Positions 4,280 to 32,521 of a stretch of DNA of 32,562 nucleotides are shown in pieces. Numbering within the stretch: the stretch's first letter is position 1; each line of letters begins with the position of its first letter. The DNA comes from Bacteroidaceae bacterium. Its GTDB lineage: Bacteria; Bacteroidota; Bacteroidia; Bacteroidales; Bacteroidaceae. Below the pieces are notes generated by a model, which saw only the letters and a program-made list of their open reading frames with translations, made no database searches and was not told the origin of the DNA. The stretch lies in contig JAFUSD010000155.1 in the NCBI GenBank assembly GCA_017480685.1, positions 1 through 32,562 on the forward strand, written 5' to 3'. The translations under genes and the position numbers were made by a program.

Positions 4280-6746
4280 CCTGACCATCGCCTTGGCTCT
4301 TGCCAGCACCTCCCTGTTTGCAATCCCTGCCACTCGCCAGCCCTTTTTCATGACACAGGCCGACGGCAGTTCGATGCTTGTGCGCCTTGTCGGCGATGAA
4401 CACATGCACTACTACGAAACAGCCGACGGCATCCCCCTTGTGAAGAACGACCGCGGCTTTTACAGGCCAGCAACATACTTCGAGGCCAAGACCATGAAAG
4501 CGCAGCGAGCTCGGCAGATACAGCGCCGCAATGCCCAACGAGCCAACCGCACACTGGGCAAGCGCTCTGACGGCACCTACATTGGCGAGAAACACGGCAT
4601 CATCATACTGGTGAACTACACCGATGTGAAGATGAAGTATCCACGTTCTGCGTTCGATGCCATGTATAACCAGCCTGGCTACAGCGAAAACGGACATATA
4701 GGCAGCCTCTACGACTACTTTCTGGAACAGAGCTACGGACTCTTCACCGTCAGATTCGACGTAGTAGGGCCCTTCACCCTGAGCCACCCCATGCAGTATT
4801 ACGGCAGCAACCTTGCCAGCGGAACCGACTCGCATGCCGGAGAGATGATTTGCGAAGCCATACACCTGGCTGACCCTCAAGTGAACTTTGCCGACTACGA
4901 CTGGGACGGCGATGGCGAGGTAGACCAAATCTACGTAGTGTATGCCGGCACCGGCGAGAACTACAGCGGAGCCGACGAGAACACCATCTGGCCACACGAG
5001 TCGTCGTTGTCGAGCAATAAGAATGCCTTGGCCGACGGCGAAGGCTCGATAACCGCCGACGGCGTAACCATCGACACCTACGCATGCAGCAACGAGTTGC
5101 AGCAAGACATGCAGACACTTTGCGGCATAGGCACGGCAGCCCACGAATTCTCACACTGCCTGGGACTGCCCGACATGTACGACACCAACGGACAAGAGAA
5201 CTACGCCATGTTCACATGGGACGTGATGGACGAAGGCTGCTACCTCGGCCATCCGTCCACTTCGGTGCCATGCGACTACACCACCTACGAGCGCATGTTT
5301 GCCGGATGGCTCACACCCACCGAGCTGACCGACCCCTGCGTCATCACGGGCATGGAGCCGCTGGCCATGAAACCCGAGGCATACATCGTCTACAACGACG
5401 ACAACCACAACGAGTACTATCTGCTCGAAAACCGTCAGCGGGTAGGCTTCGACTCTTACCTCTACGGCCACGGACTGCTCATACTCCATGTAGACTACGA
5501 CGAACTGATATGGGCCGACAACCGTGTCAACATCGACGCCACACACCAGCGCTGCACCATCATACCGGCCGACAACCAGTTTTGGAAGACAGACCAGGAG
5601 ACAGGCAAAAACTACATCGACCAGGAAAGCATCATGGGCGACCCCTATCCCGGATACACCGGCAACACATCGCTCACCGACACCTCCACCCCACCAGCCG
5701 CCATCTTCAACACAGCAGGCGCCACCCACTTCATGGGCAAGCCCATAGAGCAGATAACCGAGACCGACAACCGAATCTCGTTCCAGTTCATGGGTGGAGA
5801 ATATATCGAACCGCCACACGTGCTGAGCCCTACGGCAGTAAGCACCACTGCATTCACCGCCAACTGGCAGGCTGTAGACGGAGCAAAAGACTACACCATA
5901 CAGCTCAGATACAGCAACTGGGGCAGCATAGCCGACATGAAATTCCTGGCCGACAACCTCAACGGACTGGCATCAGCCACATCGGGCAACACCGACATAG
6001 GCACCACGCTCGATAACTACATGAACGCCCCAGGATGGACAGGCACACGCGTATATACCGCCAAACGCGCACTGCTGCTGGGCAGCCCCCGCATGGGAGG
6101 CACACTCACCTCGCCGCTATCGGGCACCCCAGTCACCAGCGTAGTAACCATCGTAGTCAATGCACGGCCGCTGGCAGCAAACACCGACACCAAGATGACC
6201 ATTTCGCTCATCGATGCCGACAACAAAGTGCTGGGCACACGCAGCATCACGTCGGCCAAGACCGAGAACACACTCACATTCACAGGAGTGAACAAACCAT
6301 TCAAGGTGAAGTTTGCACCAAACGGACAACACTACATACTCTCAATCTACATCTACGACGGCACCTACACAGCCGGACAAATAAAAGCCGGAGGCGTTAT
6401 AAGCTACGACAAGACCGACAACTACACAACACCTGCAACCAGCATCACCATCGACCAGCTTCGCCCCGATGCCACCTACTCATACAGGATACGCACCAAC
6501 ACCAACACGTCTATAAGCCAATGGACTCCGTGGTATTCGACAGCCGACAACATGCACGACGAGACACCCTGTGACGTGAACCGCGACGGCACCGTCGACA
6601 CACAAGATGTACTGGCCATATATCAGCGGATGCAGACATCTGAAAGCGACACATCCGCACCAGGCACCCCCGAAGACGTGAACCACGACGGCCAAGTCGA
6701 CACACAAGACGTGCTGGCAGTCTACAAACTCATGCAAGAAGAATAG
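4206..6746 (+). CDS. Secreted M6-family metalloprotease with C-terminal dockerin repeats (copy 2); start uncertain
   Basis: This is a paralogue of the preceding protease with the same order of parts: hydrophobic export segment (KGLLTIALALASTSLFA), propeptide (DGSSMLVRLVGDE), M6 catalytic domain with HEFSHCLGLPDMYD (zinc-site codons from 5142), FN3-like region, and two dockerin repeats (DVNRDGTVDTQDVLA and DVNHDGQVDTQDVLA). The 5' end is odd. The frame is open from 4086, inside copy 1, but the stretch before the signal peptide is coding only because the GC-rich inverted repeat is read through as SPLPGAPSYPPQ and onward. Alignment with copy 1 puts the ancestral start near 4260, where no ATG exists. 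Remaining in-frame candidates are ATG 4116, ATG 4206/4209 (used here, in the hairpin loop) and TTG 4236. The catalytic domain is intact; expression is in doubt. Confidence 0.85.
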   Translation: MMPSGWSSSPLGEDRRGPGEVRKGLLTIALALASTSLFAIPATRQPFFMTQADGSSMLVRLVGDEHMHYYETADGIPLVKNDRGFYRPATYFEAKTMKAQRARQIQRRNAQRANRTLGKRSDGTYIGEKHGIIILVNYTDVKMKYPRSAFDAMYNQPGYSENGHIGSLYDYFLEQSYGLFTVRFDVVGPFTLSHPMQYYGSNLASGTDSHAGEMICEAIHLADPQVNFADYDWDGDGEVDQIYVVYAGTGENYSGADENTIWPHESSLSSNKNALADGEGSITADGVTIDTYACSNELQQDMQTLCGIGTAAHEFSHCLGLPDMYDTNGQENYAMFTWDVMDEGCYLGHPSTSVPCDYTTYERMFAGWLTPTELTDPCVITGMEPLAMKPEAYIVYNDDNHNEYYLLENRQRVGFDSYLYGHGLLILHVDYDELIWADNRVNIDATHQRCTIIPADNQFWKTDQETGKNYIDQESIMGDPYPGYTGNTSLTDTSTPPAAIFNTAGATHFMGKPIEQITETDNRISFQFMGGEYIEPPHVLSPTAVSTTAFTANWQAVDGAKDYTIQLRYSNWGSIADMKFLADNLNGLASATSGNTDIGTTLDNYMNAPGWTGTRVYTAKRALLLGSPRMGGTLTSPLSGTPVTSVVTIVVNARPLAANTDTKMTISLIDADNKVLGTRSITSAKTENTLTFTGVNKPFKVKFAPNGQHYILSIYIYDGTYTAGQIKAGGVISYDKTDNYTTPATSITIDQLRPDATYSYRIRTNTNTSISQWTPWYSTADNMHDETPCDVNRDGTVDTQDVLAIYQRMQTSESDTSAPGTPEDVNHDGQVDTQDVLAVYKLMQEE

Positions 6747-6777: not shown

Positions 6778-6862
6778 GAGGATATCCTCGCGAGGTCGTG
6801 AGGATATCCTTGCAACCCTTTGAGGATATCCTCGCAAGGCCGCGAGGATATCCTCATTTTTT
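6778..6862 (+). repeat. 22-bp-period palindrome array 1 (4 units) ending in a T-tract; possible terminator
   Basis: GAGGATATCCTC occurs at 6778, 6800 (last base T), 6822 and 6844, exactly 22 bp apart, with 10-bp spacers GCGAGGTCGT, GCAACCCTTT and GCAAGGCCGC. Each 12-mer is self-complementary, so neighbouring units can pair as a 12-bp stem with a 10-base loop. The last unit is followed by A and six Ts. The array begins 31 bases after the stop of protease 2, so a terminator role is plausible. Confidence 0.85.
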
Positions 6863-7146: not shown

Positions 7147-7947
7147 ATGCTAAAAATCATTGTACTGGCAAAGCAGGTGCCCGACACTCACAACGTGGGA
7201 CCTGAGGCCATGACACCCGAGGGCACGGTCAATCGTGCTGCCCTGCCTGCTGTGTTCAATCCCGAGGACTTGAACGCACTGGAGCAGGCCATCCGTCTGA
7301 AAGAAAAGAATCCGGGCTCGACCATCACCATGCTGACCATGGGTCTGCCCAAAGCCACCGAAGTGCTGCGCGAAGGTCTGTATCGCGGTGCCGACTGTGG
7401 CATACTGCTCACCGACCGCGCCTTAGGCGGTGCTGACACCTTGGCCACCAGCTACTCGCTGGCCCAGGCTATCAAGAAGATAGGCGATTACGACATCATC
7501 CTCTGCGGACGTCAGGCAATCGACGGCGATACAGCACAGGTAGGTCCGCAAGTGGCCGAGAAACTGGGACTGACCCAGATTACCTACACCGAGGAGATAC
7601 TGGAGTGCGACAAGCATCACATCGTGGCACGCCGCCACATCGACGGCGGTGTCGAGACAGTGGAAGGACCTATGCCCATCGTGGTGACCGTGAACGGCAG
7701 TGCTGCTCCGTGCCGCAGCCGCAACGTGAAACGCATCATGGCCAACAAGCACACCGAGTTCACCGTGTGGGGTGCAGCCGACATCGATGCCGACCCAATG
7801 CAGATTGGCAAGGCAGGAAGCCCTACAAACGTGAAGGCCGTGAAGAGCATCGTGTTCAAGGCCAAGGAGTCGAAAACACTGACCAGCAGCGACGAAGATA
7901 TTGACAACCTGATGAAAGAACTTATAGAATCAAACACTATCGGATAA
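7147..7947 (+). CDS. etfB: Electron transfer flavoprotein subunit beta
   Basis: This 266-residue cytoplasmic subunit pairs with EtfA to carry electrons from acyl-CoA dehydrogenase. The start MLKIIVLAKQVPDT is typical, and the conserved nucleotide-binding segment RQAIDGDTAQVGPQ is at 122-135. Length is normal for the FixA/EtfB family. It is followed by etfA and an acyl-CoA dehydrogenase in the same direction, an arrangement like Bcd-EtfAB of anaerobes that reduce enoyl-CoA. Whether the ETF bifurcates electrons cannot be settled by eye. It has its own promoter and a roughly 130-base structured leader. The spacer to etfA holds a decayed GC-rich repeat. Confidence 0.95.
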   Translation: MLKIIVLAKQVPDTHNVGPEAMTPEGTVNRAALPAVFNPEDLNALEQAIRLKEKNPGSTITMLTMGLPKATEVLREGLYRGADCGILLTDRALGGADTLATSYSLAQAIKKIGDYDIILCGRQAIDGDTAQVGPQVAEKLGLTQITYTEEILECDKHHIVARRHIDGGVETVEGPMPIVVTVNGSAAPCRSRNVKRIMANKHTEFTVWGAADIDADPMQIGKAGSPTNVKAVKSIVFKAKESKTLTSSDEDIDNLMKELIESNTIG

Positions 7948-8028: not shown

Positions 8029-9066
8029 ATGAATAACGTATTTGTATATTGTGAACTGGAAGGCAACAAGGTTGCCGACGTAAGTTTGGAGCTTTGCACC
8101 AAAGGTCGCAAGCTCGCCAACCAACTGGGCGTACAACTGGAAGCCATACTTATCGGCACAGGTCTCGATGGTGTTGAAAAACAAGTAATACCCTACGGAG
8201 TTGACCGCGTCCACGTGTTCGACGACGCCCGCCTCTTCCCCTACACTTCGCTGCCACACACATCGGCAGTCGTAAACCTGTTTAAGGAAGAACAACCACA
8301 GATATGCCTGCTCGGCGCTACCGTCATCGGCCGCGACCTCGGCCCGCGCGTCTCGTCGGCACTGCATTCAGGACTCACCGCCGACTGCACCCAGCTCGAA
8401 ATCGACGACTTCGACATGAAGGTGAAGGAAGGCGACCAGTTCGTCGACAAGCACTACGAGAACCAGCTCATGCAGATTCGTCCTGCATTCGGAGGCTCAA
8501 TCATCGCTACAATCGTCAACCCAGAACACCGTCCACAGATGGCAACCGTGCGCGACGGAGTGATGAAGAAAGAAATTCTCGACCCCAACTACAAAGGTGA
8601 AGTCATCAAGCACGAAGTAGGCAAGTACGTGCCTGAGACCGACTACGTGGTACACGTGCTCGACCGTCACGTCGAGGCAGCCAAGCACAACCTCAAGGGA
8701 GCCAGCATCATCGTGGCCGGCGGCTACGGAGTCGGAAGCAAGGAAGGTTTCGACCTCATCTTCCGTCTCGCCAAGGAAATCCACGCCGAGGTAGGTGCCA
8801 GCCGTGCAGCTGTCGATGCAGGATGGATTGACCACGACCGCCAGATTGGTCAGACAGGAGTCACCGTACGTCCGAAGGTATATATCGCCTGCGGTATCAG
8901 CGGAGCCATACAGCACATCGCCGGCATGAAGGAGTCGGGCATCATCATCTCGATCAACAACGACCCCAACGCACCAATCAACCAGATTGCCGACTACAAC
9001 ATCTGCGGCAACCTCGAAGACGTTCTGCCAAAACTGATTAAGTATTATAAGAAGAATAATAAGTAA
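8029..9066 (+). CDS. etfA: Electron transfer flavoprotein subunit alpha
   Basis: This 345-residue FAD-binding subunit of ETF has an N-terminal domain (about 1-200) corresponding to the EtfA alpha/beta fold. The C-terminal FAD domain carries the expected motifs: GGYGVGSKEGFDLI from about residue 231, SRAAVDAGW near 262-270, GISGAIQH at 289-296, and SINNDPNAPI before the end. Its partner EtfB is upstream and the dehydrogenase is downstream, so the three should form one electron-transfer unit. The start ATG at 8029 lies 81 bases after the etfB stop, beyond a GC-rich repeat. The protein is complete and of normal length. Confidence 0.95.
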   Translation: MNNVFVYCELEGNKVADVSLELCTKGRKLANQLGVQLEAILIGTGLDGVEKQVIPYGVDRVHVFDDARLFPYTSLPHTSAVVNLFKEEQPQICLLGATVIGRDLGPRVSSALHSGLTADCTQLEIDDFDMKVKEGDQFVDKHYENQLMQIRPAFGGSIIATIVNPEHRPQMATVRDGVMKKEILDPNYKGEVIKHEVGKYVPETDYVVHVLDRHVEAAKHNLKGASIIVAGGYGVGSKEGFDLIFRLAKEIHAEVGASRAAVDAGWIDHDRQIGQTGVTVRPKVYIACGISGAIQHIAGMKESGIIISINNDPNAPINQIADYNICGNLEDVLPKLIKYYKKNNK

Positions 9067-9067
9067 A

Positions 9068-9148
9068 GCCCCCTCCTTACTCCCCCAAGGGGGAGAGGCA
9101 TGCGCCATACGGACAAAGCCCCTCCCCTTGGGGGAGGCGGGGGAGAGG
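9068..9148 (+). repeat. CCCCTCC-family inverted repeat in the etfA-acd spacer
   Basis: The left arm reads CCCCCTCCTTACTCCCCCAA then GGGGGAGAGG. The right arm reads CCCCTCCCCTTGGGGGAGGC then GGGGGAGAGG. The centre CATGCGCCATACGGACAAAG resembles the loop of the copy at 4157-4279. It fills the gap between etfA and the dehydrogenase and should form a strong hairpin in the shared transcript. Confidence 0.8.
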
Positions 9149-11229: not shown

Positions 11230-12642
11230 ATGGAAACAAATCAGACTAATGCAAACAGCTTGAAGGGATTCTACAAGCTGAACTGGATGCAACGCATCGG
11301 CTTCGGTTCGGGCGACTTGGCTCAGAACCTCATCTTCCAAACAGTGGCAACCTATTTGATGATTTACCTTACGACGGTATTGAAGATCAACCTGGCATTT
11401 GTCAGCGGACTTATCCTCACGGTTCGTCTCGTCGACTGCTTCTGGAGTCCGGTAGTGGGACGCTATATCGACAACCGCAATCCTAAGTTGGGTAAGTATC
11501 GTGCCTACCTGCTCTATGGTGGCATTCCGCTCACCGTTGCTGCCTGCTTGCTGATGCTTCCTCAGGCTGCCACATGGTCGATGCCGATGAAGATGGTCTA
11601 TGCTGCAGCAAGCTACACGGTGCTGAGCATGATATATTCGGTGGTGAACATCCCTTACGGCTCGATTATGGCCAGTATGACTCGCGACAACGATGAAGTG
11701 CTCATCCTCACATCCACCCGTATGGTATGCGCCAACATTGGTCAGATTGTCGTTCAGGCTGGTTTCCCAATCGGACTTGCCATGTGTGTTCACACTGCAA
11801 TCGACTGGAATCAGGCTACGTTCATGGCTATCGGAACCATCCCTGCATTCATCATCCTGCCTTCGCTGCCTATACTGAAGAAGTGGTTGGGGAAGAAGGG
11901 GTTGTACTACACGCTCCTTTCTGTAGGCCTTGTCGGATTTGCTATATTGTTCGTCGTAGGTAAGTTCTTCGACGTGCAGAGTTGCAACACAATAGTTCAG
12001 ATAGCCAAGATCATGACCGGAGTGGGTCTGCTTGTTGGTTCGCTCATGTGGGCACTGGTGCCCGAGGTCATCACCGAGGCCGAATATCGCACGGGCAACC
12101 GTCCGGCAGCCACAGTCAATGCACTGGCCGGAGTTGCTTTCAAGGCCGGATTCTCTATCGCTGGTTGGATTACGCCGCTGGTAATGGGCATGATTGGTTT
12201 CAACTTCGTAAACGAAGAGTCGGCATTGCCTACCGACCCGACGGCATGGTTCACCGTGACATGTGTGTTTGCACTCATCGGTTTTGTGCTCCTTATGTTC
12301 TGTTTCATGGGTAGCAAGGAGAACATCACCACCACCCCCGAGAAGCCTGTATCGTTTGGCGAGATGTGGCAGGAGTTCAAAGCCAACAAGTGTCTGCAAC
12401 TGGTGCTCGGCATCTTCGTCGTAGTATTCCTCGCATCGTTTATTAGTGCACCGGTTAATGCATACTACGTGAAGCTGGCCAACTATTCAGAGATAGCACA
12501 GAATGCCCTGCTGCTCTTCACCACCATCATCCCGGCCTTACTGCTCGTGGTTGTAGGATATCTGGTTTATAAATATCCACTTACCGATGAGCGCCTCGAC
12601 GAAATCAACCGCGAAATCGAAGCAAGGGCTGGCAACAAATAA
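11230..12642 (+). CDS. MFS transporter of the glycoside-pentoside-hexuronide (GPH) cation symporter family
   Basis: This 470-residue inner-membrane symporter resembles MelB. About twelve hydrophobic segments are visible. The N-terminal signature QRIGFGSGDLAQN and the loop VVGRYIDNRNPKLGKYRAYL, with its conserved Asp, Arg and Lys, mark the GPH family, which imports sugars or sugar acids with sodium or protons. The substrate cannot be read from sequence. It is transcribed alone: a promoter lies upstream, and a palindrome array with T-tract lies 26 bases after the stop. No glycosidase is adjacent; the nearest sugar gene is the GH26 mannanase 4 kb downstream, in a separate unit. Confidence 0.9.
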   Translation: METNQTNANSLKGFYKLNWMQRIGFGSGDLAQNLIFQTVATYLMIYLTTVLKINLAFVSGLILTVRLVDCFWSPVVGRYIDNRNPKLGKYRAYLLYGGIPLTVAACLLMLPQAATWSMPMKMVYAAASYTVLSMIYSVVNIPYGSIMASMTRDNDEVLILTSTRMVCANIGQIVVQAGFPIGLAMCVHTAIDWNQATFMAIGTIPAFIILPSLPILKKWLGKKGLYYTLLSVGLVGFAILFVVGKFFDVQSCNTIVQIAKIMTGVGLLVGSLMWALVPEVITEAEYRTGNRPAATVNALAGVAFKAGFSIAGWITPLVMGMIGFNFVNEESALPTDPTAWFTVTCVFALIGFVLLMFCFMGSKENITTTPEKPVSFGEMWQEFKANKCLQLVLGIFVVVFLASFISAPVNAYYVKLANYSEIAQNALLLFTTIIPALLLVVVGYLVYKYPLTDERLDEINREIEARAGNK

Positions 12643-12668
12643 CGATACAAGTAAGCGTGGCTTCTGAC

Positions 12669-12752
12669 GAGGATATCCTCAACACCTTGTGAGGATATCC
12701 TCACAGCCCCTTGAGGATATCCTTGCGAGGTCGCGAGGATATCCTCATTTTT
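12669..12752 (+). repeat. 22-bp-period palindrome array 2 (4 units) ending in a T-tract; possible terminator
   Basis: GAGGATATCCTC occurs at 12669, 12691, 12713 (last base T) and 12735, exactly 22 bp apart, with spacers AACACCTTGT, ACAGCCCCTT and GCGAGGTCGC. The final GCGAGGATATCCTCATTTTT repeats the end of array 1. It begins 26 bases after the symporter stop. Paired units would form 12-bp stems with 10-base loops. Confidence 0.85.
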
Positions 12753-12830
12753 CATTCCGCACACTATGCCACCGCATCGGGCCCCTTCCAAGGATTATGA
12801 TTCAATGCATTTACCAGACAGCGATAACAG

Positions 12831-12880
12831 TAAATCGTCAAATCGTAAATGAATCGAAGAGTTCTAAAACATAAGAACTC
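12831..12880 (+). repeat. Inverted ATTTACG heptamer run and small hairpin
   Basis: AAATCGTCAAATCGTAAAT is the reverse complement of the heptamer run at 31640. It is followed by GAGTTCT (12859-12865) pairing with AGAACTC (12874-12880), and then AGAGCTTTTTT. The hairpin may be a weak terminator. The rest of 12753-12956 shows nothing recognisable. Confidence 0.5.
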
Positions 12881-12956
12881 CAAAACTTAAGAGCTTTTTT
12901 CACACTTCACCTTTAATTTTTAGCCATAAGTTTACTCTTATTCCGATTTTTATTTT

Positions 12957-12964
12957 TAACTTTG
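12957..12964 (+). promoter_or_regulatory. Bacteroidetes-type promoter (-7 box TAACTTTG)
   Basis: TAACTTTG matches TAnnTTTG and lies 92 bases before the 897-residue secreted protein gene. The leader contains a small stem, GTAGCA (12993-12998) with TGCTAC (13004-13009). Confidence 0.65.
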
Positions 12965-13055
12965 CCACGTCAAGTGTTTCGACGAATCCATAGTAGCATG
13001 GTCTGCTACAAACCATAACGGCATTACTTATAATCAGAATATAATTAATCATGAC

Positions 13056-15749
13056 ATGAAACGGAATCTACTTACACAAATCATCGGGCTCATCATGCTG
13101 ATAGCATGCACGGCAGTTGCCAATGCAGGCAGTCGCCACACCTTCACTTTCAACATCAGCCGCCCTGTCGATGCAGGCGAGCCCACACGGTGTGAGGTGA
13201 AGCCCACACTCGTCAAAAGCCTTATAGGCCTCTCTGCAAACAACCTCGGCTCAGCCCTGCTGCGTGCCGCGTGGACCAGTTCGACCGGCAAGGAGACGTT
13301 CTACGAAACCACAACATCTGACGTGGCAGACGAACGCGGCCACTGGTTTTCGAAAAATGGAATAGCCACCAACAAATCGAAAAGCTACTGCATTAAGGTG
13401 GTGTGGAATGCTCCTTCGTTCCTCGTAAGCCATAATGCTGAAGCTAATGCCGAGGAAGGCAACACATACACAGTGAAGGAAGCACTTATCAACGGCACCG
13501 ACACGATAGTGTATGTATTCAATGTGTCCATCGGTGCCGCGGGCTCCACCGCCTCTGTCACCGATGATCAACCGGCAGTCGTTGGTCGTAAAAGCCAGAC
13601 CGATGGGTGGCTCGTACGCCCCGTAGTACGCCAGAACGAGCAAGACCCGCGCCATGAGAACTTCATATCAGTGAGCGCAGGCGACCAAATCACCCTCGGC
13701 TGCGAGATTATCGACACCAAGACCTACACATCAGGCAAATACGCGTGGTCGAAGGTATCGTGGGATGCCAGTCAGAAGAAAGACGTGGTAAAGACCCTTC
13801 GCACCTATCGTAGCGACGATTTTGTGCTGACACAGAATGCAGAATACGACGACGGCGGCATGTATCGCGTCGTGGCACGTCTGTCGGATGCTGACGGCAA
13901 GGTGACCGTAGCGACCTACTACTTCTATGTAGACGTACAGACACAAGCCGGTGCCACATTCTGGGATTGGACTGGCGAGGTGCCACAAATCAGTTACGAC
14001 TTCCACACCGAATACCCCACACTCACCCCACCTACAAAAATCCACACCGTGAAGAAGAAGAACGGCCAGCCAGCCAACTACTATGCCGGCAAGTGGTGGT
14101 CGGTGTTCTGGGGCGACGACCTCAACGACGAGGTGGGCGGACAGGAGAAAGCCATGGAGGCAGCCAAGAACATGGTTGAGAAATACGATACCGACTTCGA
14201 ATACATATACGACCAGATAGGATGGCCGCCCAACCTCAGTGCACGCAACGGCTTCAAGTCGATGATCTACATCTTCGGCTCCGGACTTGCCAACGACAAC
14301 ACCAGCAAGACCGAGAAGGGCGGATATCAGAGTGCAACCACCGTCGACGGCCGCTCCTATGCATGTGTGTGGGCCAGCTATTATCCATTCTCGCGCTTCC
14401 GCTCCGATGCCGACCAGTTGTGGAGCGACGGCCACTATCAGCGCGAAGCCATGATACACGAAGGCATACACACCCTCTTTGCCGACCTCGGTGCATGTCA
14501 AGGCTCCAGCTGGTTCCACGAAGGTGGCAATGTGTGGCTGCAGCAGGAACTACACGTGCGTCGTGACAACTCCTACGAAACCACACCCGGATATCTCGGA
14601 GCAGGCAACGTGCTATGCCCCTTCATACCCATCGAGTGCTACTCGGGATGGTTGCAGGACGGCTCGTTTGGCGGACCTGCTGCACAGGGAGTCAACATGT
14701 ACAACGGCGGACAGCAGATATGCACGTGGCGCAACCTCATCGGAGGAGTGCAATACAGCGATGTCTTCCCCGTGGTATTCAGTTCTGTCTGCGGTTCGCA
14801 GTCGGTGGCATGGATATGGCGCTACTGCAAGAACCGTGTGCTCGAGACCATAGGCAGCCATATCGGCGACGAAGCAATGCGCAACTTCATCACCCAGTAT
14901 CGCGCACGCCTCGCACTATTCGACCTCAACGGATGGGACAACGGCTACCGCAACCTTGCCAACAACCACTTCGGAGTCACAGTCAAGGCCGAATGGTCGC
15001 CTTACTGGATAGACGTGGCACCATTCCGCCTCACTCCATATCAGACACTCGAACTCAACGACTCGGCCGGATGGATGGCACCCGACACACTCACCAACCC
15101 GGGATGGAGCGGAGCCAACATCATTCCGATACACGTGAGCGGCTCGGTGGCCAATGTAGAATTCCGCCCCGAAGACAGCCACATGCGAGCCCTGCTCTGC
15201 TACCGCACCAAAGACGGCAAGTGCTACTACAGCCGTCCATACTACTGCGGCAATATGAGTATCGACCTTACACCCGGCCCAGCCAACGGCGTCATCTTCT
15301 GTGTCGTCATCAACACCGACTATGATTATCTGGGCGAAGAACAGCGCAAGCACCACTGGGACTACCGCCTGCGACTCGGACAGGGAGCACTTGCTACTGC
15401 CGACCTGACCATAAAGTGGTATTTCTATGAAAACACACTGCGCGATGTAGATTTCGAGACAGGCATACAGTCTGTAGAGCGCGACTACAACGAGGTCAAC
15501 AACACCGACGGAGTGAAGATACTCTCGGGCTCAATCAGTGCCGGACAAAACCTGCAATTCGACCTCGGAGGCATCAATCCATCAGATGTCACGGTGCGCT
15601 TGGTGGGCATCTCTGGAGTAGTGGTTGGAAGCGGACGGCTTAGGGCCGACGGTTCGTTCACACTGCCAGGCAATCTGTCGCCAGGCCTCTACATCCTAAC
15701 CCTCGCATACGGCGAGAACCGCGATATAATCAAGATTATGGTCAAGTAA
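13056..15749 (+). CDS. Large secreted protein with putative zinc-metallopeptidase site and T9SS-like C-terminal domain
   Basis: I do not recognise this 897-residue protein with certainty; it may belong to the DUF6055-like group. Residues 1-24 are a signal peptide (MKRNLLTQIIGLIMLIACTA). An Ig-like region lies around 190-300 (SVSAGDQITLGCEI ... GGMYRVVARLSD). A central domain (about 330-680) contains AGKWWSVFWGDD and the sequence MIHEGIHTLF, an HExxH zinc-binding candidate with H468, E469 and H472. WFHEGGN follows, with E489 placed 17 residues after the second histidine, as a third ligand might be in gluzincins. The last 70 residues (DVTVRLVGISGVVVG ... LSPGLYILTL ... KIMVK) look like a type IX secretion sorting domain. 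It is monocistronic, with its own promoter and a 3' hairpin. A surface or secreted peptidase is the best inference. Confidence 0.75.
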   Translation: MKRNLLTQIIGLIMLIACTAVANAGSRHTFTFNISRPVDAGEPTRCEVKPTLVKSLIGLSANNLGSALLRAAWTSSTGKETFYETTTSDVADERGHWFSKNGIATNKSKSYCIKVVWNAPSFLVSHNAEANAEEGNTYTVKEALINGTDTIVYVFNVSIGAAGSTASVTDDQPAVVGRKSQTDGWLVRPVVRQNEQDPRHENFISVSAGDQITLGCEIIDTKTYTSGKYAWSKVSWDASQKKDVVKTLRTYRSDDFVLTQNAEYDDGGMYRVVARLSDADGKVTVATYYFYVDVQTQAGATFWDWTGEVPQISYDFHTEYPTLTPPTKIHTVKKKNGQPANYYAGKWWSVFWGDDLNDEVGGQEKAMEAAKNMVEKYDTDFEYIYDQIGWPPNLSARNGFKSMIYIFGSGLANDNTSKTEKGGYQSATTVDGRSYACVWASYYPFSRFRSDADQLWSDGHYQREAMIHEGIHTLFADLGACQGSSWFHEGGNVWLQQELHVRRDNSYETTPGYLGAGNVLCPFIPIECYSGWLQDGSFGGPAAQGVNMYNGGQQICTWRNLIGGVQYSDVFPVVFSSVCGSQSVAWIWRYCKNRVLETIGSHIGDEAMRNFITQYRARLALFDLNGWDNGYRNLANNHFGVTVKAEWSPYWIDVAPFRLTPYQTLELNDSAGWMAPDTLTNPGWSGANIIPIHVSGSVANVEFRPEDSHMRALLCYRTKDGKCYYSRPYYCGNMSIDLTPGPANGVIFCVVINTDYDYLGEEQRKHHWDYRLRLGQGALATADLTIKWYFYENTLRDVDFETGIQSVERDYNEVNNTDGVKILSGSISAGQNLQFDLGGINPSDVTVRLVGISGVVVGSGRLRADGSFTLPGNLSPGLYILTLAYGENRDIIKIMVK

Positions 15750-16062: not shown

Positions 16063-16512
16063 ATGAAACGAATCACAACAATTCTGATGCTGGCATTTGC
16101 CATATGCCATGCCACATCGGTAGAAGCCAAGAGCCTGGTGCTCGTCATGAGCGACAGCACCCGTGTTTATTTCCTGTTGGACGACACACCTGTCATGAAA
16201 TTCAACGGAGGCAACATCACGGTCGACACCAAAACATATGCGTTCACCGACATCGTGCGTTTCTACATCTCGGCCACCGACGACCCCAGCGGCATTGAGC
16301 AGCTGATGGCCAAGGAGGAAGTGAAATGGGAAGGCGGCACACTGCTGTTGCAAGGGAAGAAAGACGTCGAGGTGTACGACATTAACGGCCGCAAGCAGGA
16401 AGTGAAAGTCACCACCACGGCCGACAACACCTTCGTCGACACCAACAGCCTGCCCAAAGGCACGTACGTAATGAAAAGCGGAAAGACATCGCTGAAGTTC
16501 ATGAAGAAATGA
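16063..16512 (+). CDS. Small exported protein with T9SS-like C-terminal domain
   Basis: This 149-residue protein has a clear signal peptide (MKRITTILMLAFAICHATSVEA, about 1-22), then a short beta-rich body (SLVLVMSDSTRVYFLLDD). Its C-terminal half (VEVYDINGRKQEV ... LPKGTYVMKSGKTSLKFMKK) looks like a type IX secretion sorting domain. The mature part outside that domain is only about 70 residues, and I know of no function for it. It is first in a probable operon: the GH26 mannanase begins 13 bases after its stop, so it may be a surface partner of that enzyme. That link rests on position alone. Confidence 0.75.
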   Translation: MKRITTILMLAFAICHATSVEAKSLVLVMSDSTRVYFLLDDTPVMKFNGGNITVDTKTYAFTDIVRFYISATDDPSGIEQLMAKEEVKWEGGTLLLQGKKDVEVYDINGRKQEVKVTTTADNTFVDTNSLPKGTYVMKSGKTSLKFMKK

Positions 16513-25004: not shown

Positions 25005-25094
25005 GATTTATGATTTACGATTTACCATTTACCATTTCCTTTCCGGTTCGTGCCTCCACCCCTTTTGTGAAGTAATGAGGGGTTAGGGGAGGTT
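25005..25094 (+). repeat. ATTTACG heptamer run followed by a CCCCTCC-family inverted repeat
   Basis: The spacer between porZ and the yitT-rdgB fusion reads GATTTATGATTTACGATTTA then CCATTTACCATTT. It is followed by CCTCCACCCCTTTT pairing imperfectly with GAGGGGTTAGGGGAGG. The same pairing of two repeat families occurs at 31.64-31.88 kb. Confidence 0.65.
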
Positions 25095-29470: not shown

Positions 29471-29534
29471 ATGATATTTGCGATTTTACGATTTACTATT
29501 TATTTTTAGGAAGCTTTATCCGCATTCCAGTTTG

Positions 29535-31632: not shown

Positions 31633-31638
31633 CAAGGG

Positions 31639-31724
31639 ATTTACGATTTGACGATTTACGATTTATTATAGGAGGTAGCGGGGGGCTGAGTTATTTACGA
31701 TTTGCGATTTATTTACGATTTAGC
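31639..31724 (+). repeat. ATTTACG heptamer runs
   Basis: GATTTACGATTTGACGATTT and ATTTACGATTTGCGATTTAT-type runs occur either side of a GGAGGTAGCGGGGGGC stretch. The first run matches the inverse of 12831-12849. Confidence 0.75.
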
Positions 31725-31746
31725 TATTTGTTTATTTCCTTTCGGA

Positions 31747-31880
31747 TTAGGTCCTCCTCCCCGCAAGCCCCAATCCTCTCCCCTCTCTCCCTCGGGGGAG
31801 TGCGAGGGGGAGAAGAACGGATTTTGTCCCCCCTCAGTCCCCCGCAGGGGGATGACGGGGGAGATAAGAGAGGGGTTATA
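31747..31880 (+). repeat. CCCCTCC-family repeat cluster
   Basis: Two adjacent GC-rich inverted repeats are present: CCTCTCCCCTCTCTCCCTCG with GGGGGAGTGCGAGGGGGAG, then CCCCCCTCAGTCCCCC with GGGGGATGACGGGGGAG. They are of the same type as the copies at 4157, 9068 and 25050. Confidence 0.7.
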
Positions 31881-32399: not shown

Positions 32400-32521
32400 G
32401 ACGATATCCTCGCAGGCGGTTGACGATATCCTCGCAGGCTGTTGACGATATCCTCGCAGGCCGTTGACGATATCCTCGCAAGGCGTTGACGATATCCTCG
32501 CAGGCTAATGGTGATATCAAC
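32400..32521 (+). repeat. 22-bp-period array 3 (5 units plus a degenerate sixth)
   Basis: GACGATATCCTC occurs at 32400, 32422, 32444, 32466 and 32488, with a decayed GGTGATATCAAC at 32510, all exactly 22 bp apart. Spacers are GCAGGCGGTT, GCAGGCTGTT, GCAGGCCGTT, GCAAGGCGTT and GCAGGCTAAT. All five full units carry the same C at position 3, which breaks the perfect palindrome seen in arrays 1 and 2. No T-tract follows. Confidence 0.85.

What the first reader, a model, noticed from the sequence alone, without database searches (positions are those of the whole stretch)
6778..6862. Phased array of a 12-bp palindrome after protease 2, ending in a T-tract
Four GAGGATATCCTC units sit at an exact 22-bp period (about two helical turns), so all would lie on one face of the DNA. 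Because each unit is its own reverse complement, any two units can pair in RNA as a 12-bp stem; units 3 and 4 give a hairpin directly before ATTTTTT. The array could be a tandem terminator with alternative folds, or a cooperative protein-binding site. The repeats and period are seen in the sequence; the function is inferred. It resembles no repeat class I can name.
Basis: partly seen in the sequence, partly recalled or inferred. Interest (0 to 1): 0.7.

Follow-up and report, generated by a model that had tools for sequence, protein, structure and literature searches.

The report
Two-turn palindrome arrays between genes
This bacterial genome carries an estimated 160 short DNA arrays, mostly four to six near-mirror-image 12-letter sites spaced 22 letters apart between genes, and several related species show the same spacing with different site sequences; the arrays are likely docking strips for a paired DNA-binding protein, predicted to mark boundaries between genes.

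Summary
The array is real (unit 2 is one base off) and is one of three in the window. About 160 arrays are estimated genome-wide (66 in 775,645 bp, scaled by pattern count). Neighbouring units lie 22 bp apart in 224 of 234 cases, nearly always between genes; the 12-bp core is conserved (0.96 identity between neighbours), the 10-bp spacer is not (0.76). None of 16 other same-genus genomes carries the two-unit pattern, but some have a private core at the same step: GAGTGCGCACTC in two sister species, GGTGTACACC and CTTGCTAAA in two others. In 80 named loci from relatives, 22 bp is the commonest tandem period (19 of 61 hits). The period recurs; the sequence does not.

A pure terminator role is disfavoured: T-tracts show no clear polarity to transcription and are as common on poorly folding arrays, and divergent gene pairs hold arrays about as often as tandem ones. 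I favour duplex DNA bound by a dimeric protein (inferred, 0.4); a selfish repeat is close behind (0.3). Closest known: the 23-nt BrickBuilt minisatellite-MITE of Porphyromonas gingivalis.

The parts
6778..6855 (.). Array 1: four 12-bp units at 22 bp (unit 2 is GAGGATATCCTT), 10-bp spacers
6856..6862 (+). ATTTTTT tract directly after array 1
   Evidence: terminator-like hit 6821-6856
12669..12746 (.). Array 2: four units at 22 bp (unit 3 is GAGGATATCCTT)
12747..12752 (+). ATTTTT tract directly after array 2
   Evidence: terminator-like hit 12712-12747
32400..32499 (.). Array 3: five GACGATATCCTC units at 22 bp, near the contig end; a TGATATCA palindrome follows one step further
   Evidence: RNA fold no better than shuffles on the plus strand
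4350..6746 (+). Gene before array 1: M6 peptidase with a dockerin domain (start by the home-made gene caller)
7147..7947 (+). Gene after array 1: electron transfer flavoprotein, beta-type (etfB; ETF domain)
11230..12642 (+). Gene before array 2: MFS sugar transporter
13056..15749 (+). Gene after array 2: no confident Pfam domain (weak DUF4859, under the cut-off)

Best explanation
The array is one copy of a dispersed intergenic element, mostly four to six 12-bp palindromic or near-palindromic sites spaced 22 bp apart, and it likely works as double-stranded DNA: each site would be held by a dimeric protein, and the spacing of about two helical turns would set the dimers side by side on one face so that they bind cooperatively. 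Shown: the anatomy, the copies in sampled stretches, the conserved core and variable spacer, the period, placement between predicted genes away from start codons, the lack of clear polarity to transcription, and other private cores at the same period in relatives. Inferred: that a protein binds, that it is dimeric and cooperative, and that the bound array serves as a boundary between transcription units. Birth by local duplication in 22-bp steps, followed by spread of one unit through the genome, is inferred from a few relatives.
For: 224 of 234 distances between neighbouring unit hits are 22 bp, without selecting arrays first. Core identity between neighbouring units 0.964 against 0.758 in spacers. 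Exact 12-mers do not stand alone in 405,458 bp; with one mismatch allowed 11 of 314 hits do. The double variant GACGATATCGTC is seen once against 13 expected in 58 arrays. Same 22-bp step with other private cores in G014/G015, G001 and G008. Period 22 dominates in same-genus stretches (16 of 19 hits; 13 of 19; shuffled controls none). GAC polarity is random to transcription (8 same, 7 opposite), and variants that RNA wobble pairing would tolerate are not favoured (14 against 22).
Against: No binding protein was found or sought by experiment. Array sites are often not shared with sister species: of own-array gene sides compared, 9 of 14 (5') and 4 of 9 (3') have no array in the sister, as expected of a repeat without a site-specific role. 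Once 120 bp before the next start is excluded, placement in tandem gaps is uniform (p 0.25). The G008 core is not palindromic, and 35 of 49 noncoding arrays of relatives lack a significant inverted repeat. Flanking palindromes are not in phase with the arrays (12 of 68, p 0.21). The lack of double variants could also come from tandem copying. Outward T-tracts (47 of 116 ends) are better explained by termination.
Confidence: 0.4

Rival explanations
1. A selfish or neutral dispersed repeat (REP- or MITE-like minisatellite): the core is kept because some trans-acting enzyme needs it for spread, and the array has no host role. It piles up wherever intergenic DNA tolerates it.
For: Private to one species or a sister pair with high copy number. 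Gain and loss at matching sister sites. Occupancy rises with gap length and not clearly with gene orientation. Starts are avoided, otherwise uniform placement. BrickBuilt in P. gingivalis is described as such an element (PMC4596501).
Against: No mobilising enzyme found: no Y1 transposase in G000, G008, G014 or G015 (other enzymes not searched). No shared leader, tail or long terminal repeat in the 116 flanks. Selfishness alone does not predict the same 22-bp step with unrelated cores in several species. A weak link of array sites between sister species at gene 3' sides (3 of 7 or 8 against 1 of 26 or 27, p 0.02-0.03 after correction).
Confidence: 0.3
2. A bidirectional intrinsic terminator: units pair in the transcript as strong hairpins and the outward T-tracts end transcription from either side.
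For: Window arrays 1 and 2 fold with z -8.8 to -10.6 on either strand and are called terminator-like (9 such hits in the region against 5.9 in shuffles). Arrays other than the mostly-GAC ones have median RNA z -7.9, n=44 (simple shuffles). Outward TTTT at 47 of 116 ends against 6.6% background, p 2e-25. Median 40 bp after the upstream stop in 35 tandem gaps.
Against: T-tracts are hardly commoner downstream than upstream (17 and 13 of 39). GAC-rich arrays, which fold much less (median z -3.2, n=14), have as many T-tract ends (19 of 44) as GAC-free ones (21 of 54). Spacers pair less than controls, at their own ends and nested (z -7.1). 16 of 66 arrays lie between divergent genes, where no gene ends. 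No wobble bias. Hairpins do not need a fixed 22-bp step.
Confidence: 0.25

Closest known systems
BrickBuilt minisatellite-MITE of Porphyromonas gingivalis (PMC4596501; abstract and passages seen)
   Same: Species-restricted, intergenic, tandem repeats near two helical turns (23 nt), with conserved and non-conserved parts of the unit; predicted long stem-loops; change in repeat number between strains.
   Different: BrickBuilt has 19 copies with leader and tail segments ending in small inverted repeats and 1 to 22.8 repeats; here an estimated 160 arrays of mostly 4-6 units, 22 bp, no shared leader or tail, and a palindromic core.
REP elements and their clusters (GTAG/CGTC families; PMC3733652, passages seen)
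   Same: High-copy intergenic palindromic repeats with a likely species-restricted spread.
   Different: REPs are stem-loops of 20-40 bp with a GTAG or CGTC tag, mostly single or in head-to-head pairs; here loopless 12-bp palindromes in strict 22-bp tandem, and no Y1 transposase in the own genome.
Intrinsic transcription terminators (general knowledge)
   Same: Arrays 1 and 2 have a strong stem followed by a T-tract.
   Different: Array 3 does not fold; no clear polarity with transcription; arrays between divergent genes.
Plasmid iterons (recalled; no call)
   Same: A few phased direct repeats of about 22 bp with a sequence private to each replicon, bound cooperatively by a protein.
   Different: Iterons form an origin beside a rep gene; here arrays are scattered through the chromosome, and none of the 7 window proteins scanned is a replication initiator.

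Membership tests
REP element (GTAG/CGTC) | Stem-loop of 20-40 bp with an unpaired GTAG or CGTC tag | tested here: not met
   Units are loopless 12-bp palindromes with 10-bp variable spacers. One variant, GAGGATATCGTC, happens to end in CGTC, but no tagged stem-loop is present.
REP element (GTAG/CGTC) | Y1 (RAYT) transposase in the genome (for GTAG REPs; CGTC REPs lack one) | tested here: not met
   PF01797: 0 matches in G000, G008, G014, G015; matches in 6 of 17 genus genomes. The own genome is 90% complete.
BrickBuilt MITE | Tandem repeat with a conserved and a variable part | tested here: met
   Core 0.964, spacer 0.758 identity between neighbours; but 22 and not 23 nt.
BrickBuilt MITE | Leader and tail segments with inverted-repeat ends | tested here: not met
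   In 116 flanks no 10-mer beyond the first 8 bases is shared by more than 2; signal is in positions 1-6 and, weakly, at 17.
Intrinsic terminator | G+C-rich hairpin followed by a T-tract | tested here: inconclusive
   Met by window arrays 1 and 2, not by array 3; outward TTTT at 47 of 116 ends.
Intrinsic terminator | T-tract on the downstream side of the gene that ends there | tested here: not met
   17 downstream against 13 upstream of 39 tandem arrays.
Intrinsic terminator | RNA 3' ends at the site | not testable with these tools
   No RNA data for this organism.
CRISPR array | Repeats of 21 bp or more with longer unique spacers (definition recalled) | tested here: not met
   12-bp repeat, 10-bp spacers, 121 distinct among 201.
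CRISPR array | Adjacent cas genes | not tested
   7 window proteins scanned with Pfam, none Cas; no search of the genome for cas genes.
Plasmid iterons | Adjacent replication initiator gene | not tested
   Only 7 window proteins scanned, none an initiator; the genome was not searched for initiators.

The most novel reading that the evidence does not exclude
A class of intergenic arrays in which the two-turn step (21-24 bp), not the sequence, is what persists: a dedicated machinery would duplicate local DNA in fixed two-turn steps (for example by paired nicks two turns apart and fill-in), some arrays would then spread through the genome, and each species would read its private core with its own fast-evolving dimeric protein, so that sister species differ genome-wide in the core (GATATC against TGCGCA) while the GA(G/C)-N6-CTC frame stays.
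Probability: 0.22. Interest if true: 0.85.

Novelty: new variant of a known kind. Interest (0 to 1): 0.62.

Why it matters
In the sampled contigs (most of them chosen among contigs known to carry arrays) 35 of 76 gene-to-gene gaps of 400 bp or more hold such an array, yet the papers listed by nine searches gave no description of it in what I saw. If a two-turn period with species-private cores is general in this family, it gives a direct test of what constrains intergenic DNA in gut Bacteroidales: RNA hairpins, a co-evolving DNA-binding protein, or a duplicating enzyme with a 22-bp stride.

Tried and rejected
Restriction site: GATATC is not depleted outside arrays (103 seen, 115.5 expected). 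DNA-uptake-type dispersed single sites: exact 12-mers do not stand alone in 405,458 bp, and 11 of 314 one-mismatch hits do. REP with Y1 transposase: none in G000. Known RNA family: no Rfam match in the window at gathering score. Phage or plasmid origin: no match in viral contigs for two dialects, nor in plasmid and phage records for array 1. Rearrangement hot spot: adjacency is conserved in sisters in 4 of 20 array gaps against 7 of 20 long gaps without array (p 0.48); short gaps 49 of 68; in other genus members 0 of 15 and 0 of 5. In-phase flanking palindromes: own 12 of 68, G015 4 of 23, not significant.

Corrections made on the way. (a) Shared array sites in sisters: the first 3'-side table, 5 of 9 against 1 of 26 (p 0.002), held one spurious sister hit (a GTAAATC microsatellite), one convergent pair counted twice and one weak generic own hit; corrected p 0.02-0.03. 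The 5' side is not significant (5 of 14 against 6 of 30, p 0.29). A stricter test with conserved gene pairs had 20 gaps of 100 bp or more: one own array, none in the sister. (b) Scaling by length gives 241 arrays per genome, too high because contigs were chosen from lists of array-bearing contigs; scaling by pattern count gives about 159, the figure used here. (c) The 201 of 209 spacings come from arrays defined by at least two 22-bp steps; the unselected figure is 224 of 234. Gene calls are from a home-made codon-score caller, not a standard annotator.

Full report
OBSERVATION. The window holds the array as described, except that unit 2 is GAGGATATCCTT. There are three arrays, not one: 6778-6855, 12669-12746 and 32400-32499. 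With up to 2 mismatches 13 unit sites are found against 0.99 expected.

GENOME. The window is contig C50 of a 2.83-Mb draft genome. A two-unit pattern that allows steps of 18-22 bp occurs 416/382 times (forward/reverse), reversed control 0/0. In 775,645 bp of own stretches (the window and 40 stretches) 66 arrays of three or more units and 3 of two units were found. Most of these contigs were chosen from lists of array-bearing contigs, so I scale by pattern count (332 of the 798 pattern hits lie in these stretches) and not by length: about 159 arrays per genome, not 241. Without defining arrays first, 224 of 234 distances between neighbouring unit hits are 22 bp, 9 are 23 and 1 is 44. In 58 arrays (window, L031-L050, L186-L205) unit numbers are 3 (4 arrays), 4 (27), 5 (16), 6 (10) and 7 (1). 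Two of the 58 overlap a predicted gene (home-made gene caller).

ANATOMY. Among 267 units the commonest are GAGGATATCCTC (99), GACGATATCCTC (62) and its reverse complement GAGGATATCGTC (38), GAGGATATCCTT (27) and AAGGATATCCTC (20). Neighbouring units agree at 0.964 per core position and 0.758 per spacer position; between arrays the central bases are near 1.0 and the spacers about 0.45. Spacers are directional: at four of five mirrored positions their ends pair less often than shuffled ones, and nested spacers pair less than control, 0.401 against 0.572. Exact 12-mers do not stand alone in 405,458 bp; of 314 hits with at most one mismatch, 11 have no other within 120 bp. The double variant GACGATATCGTC is seen once where independence predicts 13 (twice in the tandem arrays of the larger sample). 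Outward TTTT lies within 10 nt at 47 of 116 ends against 6.6% of intergenic windows. Beyond the first six bases there is no shared flank except a weak signal at position 17, perhaps a decayed further unit in phase.

PLACE. In 35 tandem gaps the median distance is 40 bp to the upstream stop and 238 bp to the next start. This looks like attachment to gene ends, but once 120 bp before the next start is excluded the placement is uniform (mean 0.44, p 0.25). Of gaps of 200 bp or more, 16 of 42 divergent, 35 of 98 tandem and 5 of 24 convergent hold an array (p 0.32). T-tracts lie downstream in 17 and upstream in 13 of 39 tandem arrays; GAC polarity is random to transcription (8 and 7); variants tolerated by G-U pairing are not favoured on the RNA strand (14 against 22, p 0.24). 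T-tracts are as common on arrays with at least half GAC units (19 of 44 ends) as on GAC-free arrays (21 of 54; p 0.68), although mostly-GAC arrays fold much less well (median z -3.2, n=14, against -7.9, n=44). These results weigh against an RNA terminator as the kept function. Window arrays 1 and 2 nevertheless fold very well (z -10.6 and -10.3 on the plus strand; array 3 z -0.04) and could terminate transcription.

RELATIVES. The two-unit pattern is absent from 16 other same-genus genomes (many are incomplete). GAG-N6-CTC three times at 22 bp, searched in 151 family genomes, hits the own genome (83/83), G015 (67/67, core GAGTGCGCACTC) and one site in G106 with another unit; the reversed control hits three genomes with 1, 1 and 2 sites. 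Of 118 genomes of the phylum only the own genome matches. With GAG or GAC allowed, of 16 genus members G014 has 66/90 and G015 127/167, two others one each; reversed control 1/2 in G001 and 3/0 in G015. G001 has GTGTACACC at 22 bp 89/101 times and the other 16 genomes searched none. G008 has CTTGCTAAA at 22 bp 16/9 times and four others none; its unit has a conserved part and an 8-base variable part, and is not palindromic. In UBA1391 one unit gave 2 overlapping hits at one place only. Without assuming a sequence, three exact 8-mers at a constant period of 12-70 bp gave 22 bp in 16 of 19 hits in 20 same-genus stretches (312,769 bp; some arrays count as two hits), 4 of 5 in 20 other genera of the family (352,576 bp), and 19 of 61 in 80 named loci (1,344,997 bp; next 21 bp with 7); coding repeats were not removed. 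Autocorrelation gave 13 of 19, 1 of 6 and 18 of 59, shuffled sequences none. Outside the family, 1 of 4 arrays in 13 stretches of the class and 0 of 1 in 7 stretches of the phylum was at 22 bp. Not every relative has arrays: none in the 43 kb of G003 or the 49 kb of G010 held. Some relatives use 21, 23 or 24 bp. Of 49 arrays at 21-24 bp judged noncoding by the home-made test, 14 have a significant inverted repeat in the consensus unit and 35 do not; combined p 1e-10.

SISTER SPECIES. G014 and G015 have 99-100% protein identity in two window genes and about 91-93% DNA identity in larger coding blocks, yet the intergenic stretches looked at hardly align. At matching gene sides one finds the other dialect (L187 with L069; L300 with L307; L032 with L313), another unit (L191 with L067; L042 with L314), or no array (for example L187:15951 with L304, L288 with L313). 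No array in the sister is the commoner outcome on 5' sides (9 of 14) and holds for 4 of 9 on 3' sides (before correction). In L314 the sister's ACATGTAAT array begins at the gene's own last codons and stop; the own species has the same gene end without that array, so this array looks born in place. The corrected 3'-side association of array sites is weak (p 0.02-0.03); the 5' side is not significant.

READING. A 22-bp step with free sequence, a conserved core with a variable spacer, rarely a single unit, and no clear polarity to transcription point to duplex DNA and a repeating protein on one face. About 11 bp per turn in supercoiled cellular DNA is recalled knowledge, so 22 bp is about two turns. 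No protein was found, so this remains an inference. A selfish repeat without host role is close behind, and both could be true.

LITERATURE. Nine searches listed no paper that, from title and abstract start, describes this array; the 12-mer is in no held paper. BrickBuilt (PMC4596501; abstract and passages) is nearest. PMC3733652 (passages) defines GTAG and CGTC REPs. PMC5771137 (passages) and PMC7366714 (passages) did not describe it in the passages seen.

Noticed in passing
window 25005-25037, 29476-29502, 31638-31734, 12830-12850: Tandem GATTTAC/GTAAATC heptamers, also in sister G015 (L307 near 16300); another repeat family of the intergenic DNA.
   Followed up: no
window about 31750-31880; L237 and L238 after the MFS gene; L307 near 16180-16300: CCTCCCC...GGGGAGG hairpin-like repeats between genes, apparently alternative intergenic elements in the sister species.
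   Followed up: no
window 12643-13055 against L237, L238, L239, L241: After the MFS transporter gene the next gene differs: in G003, G011, G014 and G015 the same other gene follows (looks like a GH10 xylanase by eye, untested), while the own genome has the array and an 897-aa protein.
   Followed up: partly
L187, L190, L191 against L067-L069: Coding blocks about 92% identical between sister species but intergenic DNA mostly unalignable: very fast intergenic turnover.
   Followed up: partly
L069 19511-19653; L315 near 8960-9100: G015 carries a second 22-bp dialect (GGACTGACAGTTTAC-type units) besides its TGCGCA arrays.
   Followed up: partly
L039 1404-1577; L320 18450-18830; L256 about 950-1250: Composite elements: decayed GATATC or GTGCAC units flank A+T-rich TTTGCGACGCAAA-like palindromes; steps of 22 within the GATATC units, 64 and 43 bp across the middle.
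   Followed up: partly
L191 and L205, 22 bp before the arrays at 5539 and 5059: Palindromes AAGGACGTCCTT sit exactly one step outside two own arrays: the core with both central bases changed and the palindrome kept.
   Followed up: no
L151, L153-L156, L158-L160, L182: MAGs named Fibrobacter encode an EtfA 73-79% identical to this Bacteroidales protein: gene transfer, misnaming or misbinning.
   Followed up: no
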